Assembly: GCA_023375675.1 (NCBI GenBank)
Contig: JALQBC010000037.1
Span: 368,258 to 432,257, forward strand
Direction: 5' to 3'
DNA length: 64,000 nucleotides
Source of the DNA: Cytospora piceicola
Lineage: Eukaryota > Ascomycota > Sordariomycetes > Diaporthales > Cytosporaceae
Position numbers and translations under genes: made by a program. Shown here in pieces: positions 47,908 to 53,753 of the stretch. The stretch's first letter is position 1; each line of letters opens with the position of its first letter. The notes beneath the pieces were generated by a model, which worked only from the letters and a program-made list of their open reading frames with translations, was not told the origin of the DNA and did not search any database.

Positions 47908-48470
47908 ATGTCGTCCCCGCCGCAGCCTCCCACGTCCTTCCCTGCACCCGCGGGCGCAGGCACGGCCGCGAGCCCCGACATCCCGGACCGGAGCGGGTCG
48001 CCGGACCTGCCGCTGACGATGACGGCGTCGCTCGTGCTGACGCACCTGCCCCGGGACGCGACGGCGGCGCTGGCCGAGGTGGGCACGACGTTCGCGCAGG
48101 AGAAGGTGGTGGTGCGGTTCAAGCCGGTTGGGGGGTCGGCGCCGCCGCTGCCGGCGCGCAGGGAGAGGAGCACCATCTCGGCGACGTCCAAGTTCGAGGC
48201 GGTGGTGGCGTACCTCCGGCGGACGCTCAAGGTGAAGGAGACGGAGAGCCTGTTCCTGTATGTGAACTCTACGTTTGCGCCGGCGCTGGACGAGGTGGTG
48301 GGGAATCTTTGGAGGGTGAGTACTGATTTGGTGACTGGTTCTGATATGTGTGCGAGTGCGTTGATGATGGGGGGATGTGTGGCTGACATTGGCGATTGAT
48401 GTGACAGTGCTTCAAGGACTCGAACGACCAGCTGAATGTTGGGTACTCGATGACGCCGGCCTTTGGATGA
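47908..48470 (+). CDS. atg12: Ubiquitin-like autophagy protein Atg12
   Basis: Exons 47908-48315 and 48408-48470 (gtgagt...gtgacag), 156 residues. The first 60 residues are a Pro/Ala/Ser-rich tail. The ubiquitin fold follows, with [52 protein letters not shown], and the conserved end [17 protein letters not shown]. The chain ends in the glycine that is joined by Atg7 and Atg10 to Atg5. The Atg12-Atg5 conjugate with Atg16 then drives lipidation of Atg8 on the growing autophagosome. The gene ends 139 bases before the convergent panB gene. Confidence 0.95.
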
Positions 48471-48609: not shown

Positions 48610-49720
48610 CTAAAGCCCCTTCTCAAATTCCTCCAGCTCCTCCTTCGATATGGGATACGTGTGCTCGGGGGCAGGATACGCGCGGCTCCTGACCTCATCC
48701 CGGTACGTCTCAATAGCCTTCAAGCTCTCAGACCATACATCACCATACCTCTTCACAAACTTGGGCAGGAACCGGCCCGGGGGGAAGTTGCCCATCATGT
48801 CGATCTGCACCAGGACCTGGCCAGAGCACCCGTTCCCGGCGCCGATGCCGATGGTCGGGATGGACAGCTTCTGGGTGATGAGGGCGGCCACCTCGGCGGG
48901 CACGGCCTCCATGACCATGGCGAAGGCGCCGGCCTCCTGCACGGCCAGGGCGTCCTCGAGGAGGCGGCGGGCGCCGGCGGCGGTCTTGCCCTGGACGCGG
49001 AAGCCGCCGAGGGCGTTCTGGCGCTGCGGGGTCAGGCCGACGTGGCCCAGGACGGGGATGCCGGCGGTGGTGATGCGCCGGATGGAGGGGGCCATCTCCT
49101 TGCCGCCCTCGAGCTTGACGCCCTGCACGCGGCCCGTCTTGACGAAGCGGATGGCTGTCTCTAGGGCCTGCTCGGGGCTTATCTCGTATGATCCCATTGG
49201 TAGGTCGCCGACCTGTGTGCGTTGTGTCAGTGAGGAGGGCTTCCGGTTTTGGTTTGGTGGTTGGGTGAGTGAGTGAGTGGATGAGGTGAGGTAGGATGGG
49301 ATGGATAGTGAGACTAACTGTGAAGGCAGACTTGGTAGCCCTAGCAACACTCCGACAATGCAACAGCATCTCCTCCACCAGCACCTCACTCGTGTCCTCC
49401 ATGCCCAGGGTGACCATGGCCAGGCTGTCCCCCACCAGGATTATGTCCATCCCTGCGACGTCGGCAACGAGTGCTGACGGGAAGTCATACGCGGTGATCA
49501 CACTTATGGGTTCATTCTTCTTGTGCATCGACCGCAGGGCGCCGAGGGTGACTTTCTTCCGTTGGTTTGGAGAGGGTGTGCCCATGGGTGAGTGGGAGGA
49601 GTACCTAGTCTGGAAGAAGGACAGGAGTGGTGTGGTGGCGATGAGGGCTGTTGATGGGCGTGATGAGGTGCGCGCCAGCGAGGCGGCGCATGTGCGCAGG
49701 CTTGATGATAATGAAAGCAT
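48610..49720 (-). CDS. panB: 3-methyl-2-oxobutanoate hydroxymethyltransferase (pantothenate synthesis)
   Basis: Exons 49319-49720 and 48610-49212; the join reads KSAFT-VGDLPMGSYE and gives 334 residues. A Ser/Arg-rich leader of about 45 residues (MLSLSSSLRTCAASLARTSS) looks like a mitochondrial targeting signal. The TIM barrel shows ISVITAYDFPSALVAD, the metal-binding DIILVGDSLAMV, VKLEGGKE, GHVGLTPQ, VMEAVPAEVAA (catalytic Glu) and PTIGIGAG. It adds a hydroxymethyl group from methylene-tetrahydrofolate to ketoisovalerate, giving ketopantoate, the first step to pantothenate and CoA. The intron sits at a conserved spot before the VGDLP strand. Confidence 0.95.
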
Positions 49721-51019: not shown

Positions 51020-52104
51020 ATGGCGAGTCCAAGGCGAAGGATCGAGACTGATGTAAGCTTTCCATTTTGCCCATAACTTTGGGAACAAAGAACGGGTTAG
51101 CATGGAGATACTGACCTTGCCTTCTGCTATAGGTGATGAAGTGCGTTCCCGAATCTACCGGTATCGCGTATCGCGGTGACGCTTGACGCTTGCTAACTAG
51201 CCTCTAGGATGTATGACCCGCCGAACGACCTCCCCTGCCCTCGATGCTAACTTCCGCAGGCTGATGAGTGACTACGAGGTTACCCTGGTGAACGACAACA
51301 GTGAGTAAATGCCCCGGAACACCTTCCTCGACTCCCCGTCTGACTGACTGGCTACAGTGTAAGCAACCACCTCGAAACGAACGAGCTGCCCGATTTCGAA
51401 ACGAACGACTTACACACCATGTTATAGGCAAGAGTTCTACATCAAGTTCAAGGGCCCAACCGAGACTCCTTTCGAAGGTGGTGTTTGGAAAGTCCACGTC
51501 GAGCTCCCCGACCAGTACCCCTACAAATCTCCCAGCATCGGGTTCACGAACCGTATCTTCCACCCAAACATAGACGAGCTGTAAGTGGGCAAAGAACCCT
51601 ACCTTATAATGTGATGAGGAGTGTTGTCGGTGCCGTACAGCGAGCAGCAGGAATACTTGAAGAGCACGGCTAAATAAGTGTCGTGGGAAACAGGTCCGGC
51701 TCCGTCTGCTTGGATGTCATCAACCAGACATGGTCGCCGATGTACGATATGATCAACATCTTCGAGGCATTCCTGCCACACCTGCTGCGATACCCAAACC
51801 CGTCCGACCCGTTGAACGGCGAGGCCGCCGCTTTGATGCTTAGGGATCCTAAGGGCTACGACGCCAAAGTACGGGGTATGTAAAACTATCTGTGGCTATG
51901 GTCTCCCAAATCTCCAGTCTTTGCATATCCTCGCCTTTTCAAATCACTGACACAGCCGGTTCAGAGTATGTTCAGCGGTACGCAAGCAAGGACGCAGCCG
52001 AGGAGGCCGGCGCCGAGAGCGAGGACGACGACGACATGAGCTCGGTGGGAAGCTTCGGCGACGACGACGACGACGAGCCCGCGGGCCAGATGGACGACGT
52101 GTAG
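51020..52104 (+). CDS. ubc8: Ubiquitin-conjugating enzyme E2, UBC8/UBE2H type, with microexons
   Basis: Proposed eight exons: 51020-51052, 51133-51140 (8 nt), 51208-51210 (3 nt, GAT), 51260-51300, 51358 (1 nt, T), 51428-51580, 51694-51875 and 51965-52104; 186 residues. The join gives [22 protein letters not shown] and VNDN-M-QEFYIKF, exactly the order conserved in Ubc8. Introns around the tiny exons are 80, 67, 49, 57 and 69 nt, with GT-AG ends and GCTAAC or CTGAC branch sites. The E2 fold shows [27 protein letters not shown], the active-site Cys in [12 protein letters not shown], and [16 protein letters not shown]. The tail is acidic ([12 protein letters not shown]). In yeast Ubc8 works with the GID ligase to degrade gluconeogenic enzymes. 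Simpler intron models shift the frame or drop a conserved residue. Confidence 0.9.
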
Positions 52105-52616: not shown

Positions 52617-53753
52617 TCAGTCTGAGTCGTAATCCACCAATCCCGATGATACGGCGACCACCTTTCCAGCAGGCCCTTCGTCAGGGGGCTGGGGTGGTTC
52701 GCTTTCGGTTAATCTTTTCCTCTTCAAGCCCGGCAGGGTGGTCGAAGTCTTCGTCGAGTCCCTGCTCCTCGGCTCCAAGAAGGGGTCACTAGCCAGGCGC
52801 GTGTTCCCCATGATCTCAGAGACCAAGGATTCCCTCATCTTCGAGGCCGCGATCTCCGACTTGAGTTTTCGTGGGGCTTTGACCGCTTTCCCCTTAGACT
52901 TATTGATCCCTTCTGCGCCATTCACATCACTCTTGTCATCACCAAACAGCGGCTTCGCAAGGACCTTGACCTCCTGACCAACGAAACCTTCCGGCTTCGA
53001 CCCAAAGTCCACCAGCCTGGCCCAGCGCGCATCCTCCTCGCTCTCGGGCAGCAGCTCGATGCCCAGGCTCATCCTGTCTTGCAGGTCCGCGGAGACCTCG
53101 GCGTCCTTTTCCCTCTGCTTCCTGCCGACCCGGAACTGCTTCCGGAGCATCTGGTTCCTCGCGTACGGGTCATCCCACTGCTTGGCGTTCTCCTCGTGGA
53201 TCTCGCCTATCCTCTCCTTGGCAGCCTCGAAGGCGGCGCGGTCCGCGATCGTCTTCTCGAGGTTCGCAAAGGCGCTCTCCCTCTCCTCGGCCTGCTCCTG
53301 GAACGTCCTGATGGGCCTGGCCCCCGCGGCCCCGCCGCCCACCAGCGAGTCGCCGCCGCCGCCGCCGCCCGCCCCCTCCTTCCCCTCCCCGGTGTCCCTC
53401 TTCCGCCCCCCGCTGACGACCACGTACGCCGTGTTCTTGGGGTCCGTCCGGACCTCGATCCAGCCGCCGCAGGCGGCGTGCCGCATGCGGAAGCTGAAGA
53501 CGGGGCTCGAGTAGTAGTTCCCGACCTTCCTCTTCTCGGCGTTGAAGCGGACGCCCTGCCCGATGATGGCCGGGTGCGGCCGGCAGTGGTCGCACCACAC
53601 GGCGAAGGGCATCTCGAAGCGCACGGTGAGGACGCCCTCGGTCCTGAGCCGGGAGGCGCGCGCCCCCAGCGGGTGCTTCCCGGCGAGCTGGTTGCCGCTG
53701 GATAGGCCCTCCTGGTCCGGGGGGACGTAGCGTCCCATGTTGAAGCCCTGCAT
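52617..53753 (-). CDS. Saf4/CCDC130-type splicing factor (Yju2/CWC16 family)
   Basis: Intronless, 378 residues. It begins MQGFNMGRYVPPDQEG, the typical start of the CCDC130/Saf4 branch. The conserved core covers about residues 35-120: LRTEGVLTVRFEMPFAVWC, CDHC, then HAACGGWIEVRTDPKN, with the four Cys that bind zinc, and KRKVGNYYSSPVFSFRM. After this comes a glycine-rich loop, a helical charged region (ESAFANLEKTIADRAAFEAA), DPYARNQMLRKQFR, and a disordered basic/acidic tail. Family members sit near the catalytic centre of the spliceosome and help step 1 or alternative splicing. It is nuclear. GC-rich coding produces long false frames on the other strand. Confidence 0.92.
   Translation of the reverse strand: MQGFNMGRYVPPDQEGLSSGNQLAGKHPLGARASRLRTEGVLTVRFEMPFAVWCDHCRPHPAIIGQGVRFNAEKRKVGNYYSSPVFSFRMRHAACGGWIEVRTDPKNTAYVVVSGGRKRDTGEGKEGAGGGGGGDSLVGGGAAGARPIRTFQEQAEERESAFANLEKTIADRAAFEAAKERIGEIHEENAKQWDDPYARNQMLRKQFRVGRKQREKDAEVSADLQDRMSLGIELLPESEEDARWARLVDFGSKPEGFVGQEVKVLAKPLFGDDKSDVNGAEGINKSKGKAVKAPRKLKSEIAASKMRESLVSEIMGNTRLASDPFLEPRSRDSTKTSTTLPGLKRKRLTESEPPQPPDEGPAGKVVAVSSGLVDYDSD

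What the first reader, a model, noticed from the sequence alone, without database searches (positions are those of the whole stretch)
51020..51580. Three microexons of 8, 3 and 1 nucleotides in a UBC8-type E2 gene
The conserved N-terminus IETDVMKMLMSDYEV...VNDNMQEFY is rebuilt only if exons of 8 nt (51133-51140), 3 nt (51208-51210, GAT) and 1 nt (51358, T) are used. Seen directly: TATAG|GTGATGAA|GTGCGT, CTCTAG|GAT|GTATGA and CTACAG|T|GTAAGC, and flanking introns of 49-80 nt with GCTAAC or CTGAC branch sites. A direct 51141-51259 intron would lose one conserved Met; a direct 51301-51427 intron shifts the frame. One-nucleotide exons are extremely rare, and three tiny exons in 230 bases is remarkable. 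They raise the question of how the spliceosome defines them (stepwise re-splicing is possible).
Basis: partly seen in the sequence, partly recalled or inferred. Interest (0 to 1): 0.88.

Follow-up and report, generated by a model that had tools for sequence, protein, structure and literature searches.

The report
One-letter exon in a fungal gene
A fungal gene for a protein-tagging enzyme appears to be cut so finely that three of its coding pieces are only eight, three and one DNA letters long, and related fungi seem to share the arrangement, at which most of the gene models examined go astray.

Summary
The window holds a single-copy UBC8/UBE2H-type E2 gene of a Cytospora-like fungus. Its 186-aa protein is encoded by one chain of GT-AG introns, with exons of 33, 8, 3, 41, 1, 153, 182 and 140 nt. 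No single intron of 20 nt or more, with any boundaries, rebuilds either site. A database protein from short, transcript-like contigs (P0002) equals residues 13-186 letter for letter; only the same chain, with the 3-nt and 1-nt exons, encodes it. Among listed relatives, 50 of 50 short-contig proteins are intact at both sites, but 105 of 123 Pezizomycotina genome models are broken at the 1-nt site. Control sites are broken in 1, 14 and 0 of 128. Broken models carry footprints of the hidden splice sites, so the structure looks old in Pezizomycotina. Likely mechanism: intron definition, with the introns flanking a microexon removed one after the other. One-nucleotide exons are already known (plant APC11 and VPS55, Fusarium CYP621A), so this is an extreme, probably deeply conserved member of a known kind. 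No raw RNA reads or relatives' DNA were seen.

The parts
51020..51052 (+). exon 1 (33 nt), [11 protein letters not shown]
   Evidence: spliced translation
51053..51132 (+). intron 1 (80 nt), GTAAGC..CTATAG, branch-like CTGAC, its A 18 nt before the intron end
51133..51140 (+). microexon 2, 8 nt, GTGATGAA (V M and two bases of K)
   Evidence: unique chain; its last five bases also needed by P0002
51141..51207 (+). intron 2 (67 nt), GTGCGT..CTCTAG, branch-like CTAAC
51208..51210 (+). microexon 3, 3 nt, GAT (completes K14, starts M15)
   Evidence: unique chain for P0002; no one-intron alternative
51211..51259 (+). intron 3 (49 nt), GTATGA..CCGCAG, branch-like CTAAC
51260..51300 (+). exon 4 (41 nt), ends in the A of Met29
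51301..51357 (+). intron 4 (57 nt), GTGAGT..CTACAG, two CTGAC branch-like sites
51358..51358 (+). microexon 5, 1 nt, T, middle base of the Met29 codon A|T|G
   Evidence: unique chain; the only AG-N-GT in 51301-51427
51359..51427 (+). intron 5 (69 nt), GTAAGC..TTATAG, branch candidate CTTAC at 51409
51428..51580 (+). exon 6 (153 nt), starts with the G of Met29
51581..51693 (+). intron 6 (113 nt)
51694..51875 (+). exon 7 (182 nt)
51876..51964 (+). intron 7 (89 nt)
51965..52104 (+). exon 8 (140 nt) with stop codon; whole CDS 561 nt, 186 aa

Best explanation
This is a normal, expressed UBC8/UBE2H-type E2 gene whose 5' half is cut by five short spliceosomal introns that leave exons of 8, 3 and 1 nt in the mRNA. 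Shown here: the exon chain is the only canonical one, and a transcript-like protein requires the 3- and 1-nt exons. Inferred: each intron is recognised as a unit (intron definition), and the two introns flanking a 3- or 1-nt exon are removed one after the other, because the acceptor of one lies 1-3 nt from the donor of the next. I favour the downstream intron going first (5 before 4, 3 before 2; about 55%): a donor just behind a fresh exon junction is what the exon junction complex can repress in human cells. Also inferred: the arrangement is old in Pezizomycotina and is held in place by the protein sequence, since missing the T shifts the frame.
For: Unique chain and no one-intron alternative. 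P0002 is identical to residues 13-186 and comes from contigs of at most 2745 nt, while the genomic DNA holds this gene's coding sequence only in open frames of 69, 73 and 83 aa., rows+25: 50 of 50 short-contig proteins intact at both sites; 105 of 123 Pezizomycotina genome models broken at the 1-nt site; 12 of 12 other fungal models intact. Controls on the 128 Pezizomycotina models of all three searches: 1, 14 and 0 broken at the intron 6, intron 7 and mid-exon 6 sites, against 78 and 107 at the 8/3-nt and 1-nt sites. Footprints: of 84 broken models with residues inserted, 48 begin with S (A|GT read through) and 40 end with R (AG|G); 8 show NDNM followed by YV, FV or YA, i.e. T read into a GTAYGY- or GTTYGT-like donor, and 8 show MKMY or RMY, i.e. 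the 3-nt exon read into its donor. Ubc8 8pmq_E aligns without gaps through both sites. Sequential removal is proposed for APC11, whose authors cite downstream-first removal for a 9-nt potato exon (PMC4674806, passages). Intron definition in Ascomycota is stated in PMC12403724 (passages). EJC repression of donors close to a junction: PMC6224609 (abstract and one section).
Against: No RNA read was seen; that the short 'lgn', 'jgi', 'ena' and 'merc' entries are cDNA-derived is inferred from uninterrupted frames and, where given, short contigs ('merc' rows give no contig). P0002 starts at Met13, so the exon 1/exon 2 junction is covered only by relatives' proteins. Entries are clusters at 90% identity, so isoforms may hide behind an intact representative, and each search listed only the best 120 of 4955, 5768 and 726 hits. 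21 of 128 Pezizomycotina models are intact at the 1-nt site, among them all 3 Lecanoro-/Lichinomycetes and all 4 Cladosporium models, where introns may be lost. Of 10 long inserts tested for a hidden YAG-T-GTRNGY, 5 were compatible (0.81 expected from shuffles) and 5 were not; the 5 are all Fusarium, of about two lineages. The UBE2H chain 8pjn_2 has a one-residue gap just before the 1-nt site, so length there is not invariant outside fungi. Intron 5 has no CTRAY branch site. Splicing order was not tested.
Confidence: 0.92

Rival explanations
1. Twin intron (stwintron): 51301-51427 is one complex intron with an internal intron inside a splice element of an external one, removed in two steps with no exonic base left.
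For: Same clade, same two-step logic; stwintrons are reported and validated in ascomycetes (PMC12403724, passages).
Against: The transcript-like protein needs a T between A51300 and G51428; removing the T shifts the frame. Both introns have complete donors and acceptors of their own, so no splice element is interrupted.
Confidence: 0.03
2. The exons exist but are often skipped, as a regulatory switch: GAT skipping gives a protein one residue shorter, T skipping a frameshifted transcript for decay.
For: 41 of 123 Pezizomycotina genome models are one residue short at the 3-nt site; skipping T, or retaining any of introns 1-5, brings an early stop codon.
Against: None of the 67 short-contig representatives is a skip form (50 of 50 and 17 of 17 intact), although one search used the skip form as query. 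The skip forms listed are gene models of genome records.
Confidence: 0.12
3. Genome sequence error or a decayed gene copy in this interval.
For: Short exons can be artefacts of assembly errors.
Against: P0002 agrees letter for letter over 174 residues; it is the only full-length copy found in the genome, other E2 matches being at most 44% identical; relatives' models break at the same two sites.
Confidence: 0.01
4. Non-canonical splicing or RNA editing supplies the missing T, so that T51358 is not the base used.
For: With arbitrary boundaries other T bases between 51301 and 51427 could serve in principle.
Against: The only AG-N-GT in the interval has T as its middle base and the chain is unique among GT/GC-AG chains; 8 relatives' models read as T running into a following donor.
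Confidence: 0.02

Closest known systems
CYP621A single-nucleotide exon, Fusarium (PMC12940212; abstract, part 1 of 3 of the text and Discussion read)
   Same: 1-nt exon supplying the middle base of a split codon between two short introns in filamentous ascomycetes; hard for annotation; leaving it out breaks the frame.
   Different: G (AGGGT) in a P450 of one genus, with RNA reads shown; here T in a conserved E2, beside 3- and 8-nt exons, with signs of the same structure in several classes of Pezizomycotina, but no reads seen.
APC11 and VPS55 1-nt microexons of plants (PMC4674806, PMC8831610; passages read)
   Same: 1-nt exon conserved over a large clade and missing from reference annotations; APC11 is also a ubiquitin-system gene.
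   Different: Plants; in Arabidopsis APC11 the A lies 333 nt into a 422-nt interval; I read of no cluster with a 3-nt and an 8-nt exon in these genes.
Stwintrons of Ascomycota (PMC12403724, passages)
   Same: Two U2 introns that must be removed consecutively in an intron-definition splicing system.
   Different: A stwintron leaves no base in the mRNA and its inner intron interrupts a splice element; here one base is kept and all elements are whole.
Trichoderma Xlr2 20-nt microexon (PMC11121469, passages)
   Same: Microexon in a Sordariomycete missed by gene prediction.
   Different: 20 nt and glucose-regulated; here 1-8 nt, with no sign of regulation seen.

Membership tests
1-nt exons (APC11, VPS55, CYP621A) | single nucleotide flanked by AG and GT with two separate introns of workable length | tested here: met
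1-nt exons (APC11, VPS55, CYP621A) | base present in mature transcripts | tested here: met
   only indirectly: the transcript-like P0002 needs it; that P0002 is cDNA is inferred and no RNA read was seen
1-nt exons (APC11, VPS55, CYP621A) | constitutive inclusion | not testable with these tools
   67 of 67 short-contig representatives intact, but clustering hides isoforms
1-nt exons (APC11, VPS55, CYP621A) | conserved in orthologues | tested here: inconclusive
   footprints in gene models of several classes; no relatives' DNA available
Stwintron | internal intron interrupts a splice element of the external intron | tested here: not met
   both introns complete
Stwintron | no exonic base left between the outer exons | tested here: not met
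   T needed by P0002
Zero-nucleotide recursive splice site | AG directly followed by GT, nothing retained | tested here: not met
   AG-T-GT, T retained
UBC8/UBE2H E2 | sequence relation to Ubc8/UBE2H nearer than to other solved E2s | tested here: met
   8pmq_E 1.6e-72, 8pjn_2 6.5e-67; other E2 classes from about 4e-28
UBC8/UBE2H E2 | E2 activity in the GID/CTLH pathway (recalled) | not tested
   -

The most novel reading that the evidence does not exclude
The 8/3/1-nt chain was already in the last common ancestor of Pezizomycotina and has been kept since as a device: obligatory ordered re-splicing at these exons makes UBC8 output depend on splicing efficiency, with every failure at the 1-nt exon producing a transcript for decay.
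Probability: 0.13. Interest if true: 0.85.

Novelty: new member of a known kind. Interest (0 to 1): 0.62.

Why it matters
It puts a 1-nt exon in a conserved ubiquitin-system gene of filamentous fungi, next to 3- and 8-nt exons, and suggests a wide spread: 107 of the 128 Pezizomycotina gene models examined deviate at exactly this codon. It offers a compact natural substrate for asking how the spliceosome handles an acceptor and a donor one base apart, and gives annotators a concrete, checkable correction for UBC8.

Tried and rejected
Stwintron, zero-nt recursive site, sequence error and one-intron solutions were considered and rejected. Scans of prokaryote genome contigs and viral contigs for fungal relatives' DNA gave nothing usable (three distant archaeal or bacterial loci; none). 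One search returned no solution because my target ended inside a split codon; corrected. One search stopped with an error and its 1-nt-site pattern also counted 'NDNSMQEF' as intact; replaced. One search used an earlier, slightly different classification of 118 of the 120 rows (2 plant rows dropped) and gave the same picture (38 of 38 short-contig proteins intact at both sites; 10 of 80 genome models intact at the 1-nt site). The pattern for the 3-nt site accepts any residue at the Met15 position, so a model such as Monilinia MKRLMSD counts as intact. (skip-form query, first 45 residues) favours intact N-termini, so its new rows are counted apart. Literature searches listed no report of microexons in a fungal UBC8; most subscription papers and all bioRxiv preprints are outside that library, and only the listed rows were looked at. 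Two stwintron papers searched for mini- or microexons gave no relevant passage.

Full report
What is there. The interval 51020-52104 (+) encodes an E2 of the UBC8/UBE2H type: spliced CDS 561 nt, 186 aa. Best solved relatives are 8pmq_E (E2-24 kDa, E 1.6e-72; S. cerevisiae Ubc8, recalled) and 8pjn_2 (E2 H, 6.5e-67); other E2 classes follow from about 4e-28. The genome (43.6 Mb, 99 contigs) shows no other copy: three pieces of the query match here at 90-96%, and all other listed E2 matches are at most 44% identical. The Cytospora schulzeri model P0003 is identical over the last 157 residues, so the window is probably from Cytospora or a near relative (Diaporthales); this rests on one protein.

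Exon map. I enumerated colinear exon chains that encode the first 79 residues, with introns of at least 20, 30 or 40 nt, donors GT, GT/GC or GT/GC/AT, acceptor AG, and two to six introns. With arbitrary boundaries no single intron of 20 nt or more rebuilds either VMKMLMSDYEV or VNDNMQEFY. AG-N-GT occurs once in the 127 nt between exons 4 and 6, as AGTGT. In 20,000 dinucleotide shuffles AG-T-GT with both introns >=45 nt occurred in 0.84%, with YAG and a loose GTRNG[ACT] donor in 0.02%. All seven donors lie in the top 5% of the window's + strand GT sites by a Fusarium donor matrix (frequencies from PMC5677156, passages). Introns 1-4 and 7 have CTRAY-like branch sites; introns 5 and 6 do not. Intron 5 has CTTAC, a listed variant in Fusarium.

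Transcript-level evidence. The protein search returned P0002: 174 aa, 23 member sequences, 38 contigs, longest 2745 nt, source 'lgn'. It equals residues 13-186 letter for letter, and only one GT/GC-AG chain (up to 8 introns of 30-300 nt) in the window encodes it: introns 2-7 of this map, with the GAT and T exons. The genomic DNA carries this coding sequence only in open frames of 69, 73 and 83 aa, so an uninterrupted 174-aa frame should come from cDNA. I infer this; the tool does not explain its source labels. P0002 does not cover the exon 1/exon 2 junction; that junction rests on relatives (for example P0004 and P0007).

Relatives. Each search lists only its best 120 hits (of 4955, 5768 and 726). 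Rows give 187 proteins; two plant proteins were dropped, leaving 185. Short-contig proteins: 50 of 50 intact at both sites. Pezizomycotina genome models: 46 of 123 intact at the 8/3-nt site (41 are one residue short there) and 18 of 123 intact at the 1-nt site; 11 of 123 at both. Other fungal genome models: 12 of 12 intact. Rows only, whose query favours intact N-termini: 17 of 17 short-contig, 3 of 5 Pezizomycotina and 35 of 35 other models intact at both. As controls, the 128 Pezizomycotina models are broken at the ordinary intron 6 site in 1, at the intron 7 site in 14 and in mid-exon 6 in 0, against 78 at the 8/3-nt site and 107 at the 1-nt site. Models are not independent: species are related and share pipelines. 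Classes were assigned from memory; ten names were checked and agreed.

Footprints in deviating models. If exon 4 ends in A|GT, reading on gives Ser; if exon 6 begins after AG|G, the codon before QEF is Arg. Of the 128, 21 are intact, 12 could not be aligned there, 11 take a K-F-Y/F form that drops MQE, and 84 carry inserted residues: 48 of 84 begin with S and 40 of 84 end with R (one-sided binomial P 2e-26 and 6e-22 against assumed rates of 10% and 8%, ignoring relatedness). Eight models read NDNM followed by YV, FV or YA, which is what T followed by a GTAYGY- or GTTYGT-like donor encodes; eight read MKMY or RMY at the other site, the 3-nt exon read into its donor. They come from Sordario- and Dothideomycetes and, for the T, also one Eurotiomycete. 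Of 10 long inserts, 5 can encode YAG-T-GTRNGY (0.81 expected from shuffles), all Fusarium and of about two lineages; five cannot. Pezizomycetes models (4 of 4) deviate at the 1-nt site too. So the structure is probably ancestral or nearly so in Pezizomycotina, with losses (for example 4 of 4 Cladosporium and 3 of 3 Lecanoro-/Lichinomycetes models intact). No relatives' DNA was available to prove it. Outside fungi, the UBE2H chain 8pjn_2 has a one-residue gap just before the 1-nt site.

How it probably works. Ascomycete splice sites pair across introns (PMC12403724, passages), so a tiny exon is no obstacle in itself. But the acceptor of intron 4 and the donor of intron 5 are one base apart, so the two introns should go in turn. 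The authors of the APC11 paper consider the same and cite a potato 9-nt exon whose downstream intron goes first (PMC4674806, passages). In HeLa cells the exon junction complex represses some donors lying within 15 nt behind a fresh junction (PMC6224609, one section). If that holds in fungi (not tested), removing the downstream intron first avoids the block; hence my modest preference. Skipping T, or retaining any of introns 1-5, gives premature stops; skipping GAT removes one residue from what I recall as the first helix.

Known and new. One-nucleotide exons are published for APC11 and VPS55 in plants, for placozoan mitochondrial cox1 (title in a listing) and for Fusarium CYP621A, described there as the first in a fungal gene. 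I found no report for UBC8 in eight searches of one library (listed under Tried and rejected). The new points are the conserved gene, the chain of 8, 3 and 1 nt within 226 bases, the probable spread over Pezizomycotina, and the deviation of most genome models examined at the 1-nt site.

Noticed in passing
window 52617-53753 (-): The convergent neighbour is a Saf4/Yju2-family splicing factor (Pfam E 1.3e-65; best solved relative 'Probable splicing factor YJU2B', 8.6e-43). A splicing factor beside a gene with extreme exons is probably coincidence.
   Followed up: partly
window 47908-48399 (+) and 48610-49389 (-): Upstream neighbours: an Apg12-type autophagy protein (E 1.3e-15) and ketopantoate hydroxymethyltransferase (E 2.8e-75).
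   Followed up: partly
P0002, P0073, P0113, P0163: Three short-contig proteins start at the Met13 equivalent and a fourth at a nearby internal Met. In the window intron 1 ends in TAG directly before GTG ATG, so retention of intron 1 would give the Met13 start; truncated contigs would too.
   Followed up: no
P0067, P0085, P0105, P0192, P0194, P0202: Six non-NCBI proteins read NIDE-SG without the residue at the intron 6 junction, which may be an alternative splice site 3 nt away.
   Followed up: no
P0214 and P0049: P0214 lacks the stretch between YP and SGSVCL (possible skipped exon in a transcript); P0049 has a C-terminal piece of the protein in front of the N-terminus (assembly artefact, tandem copy or back-spliced RNA).
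   Followed up: no
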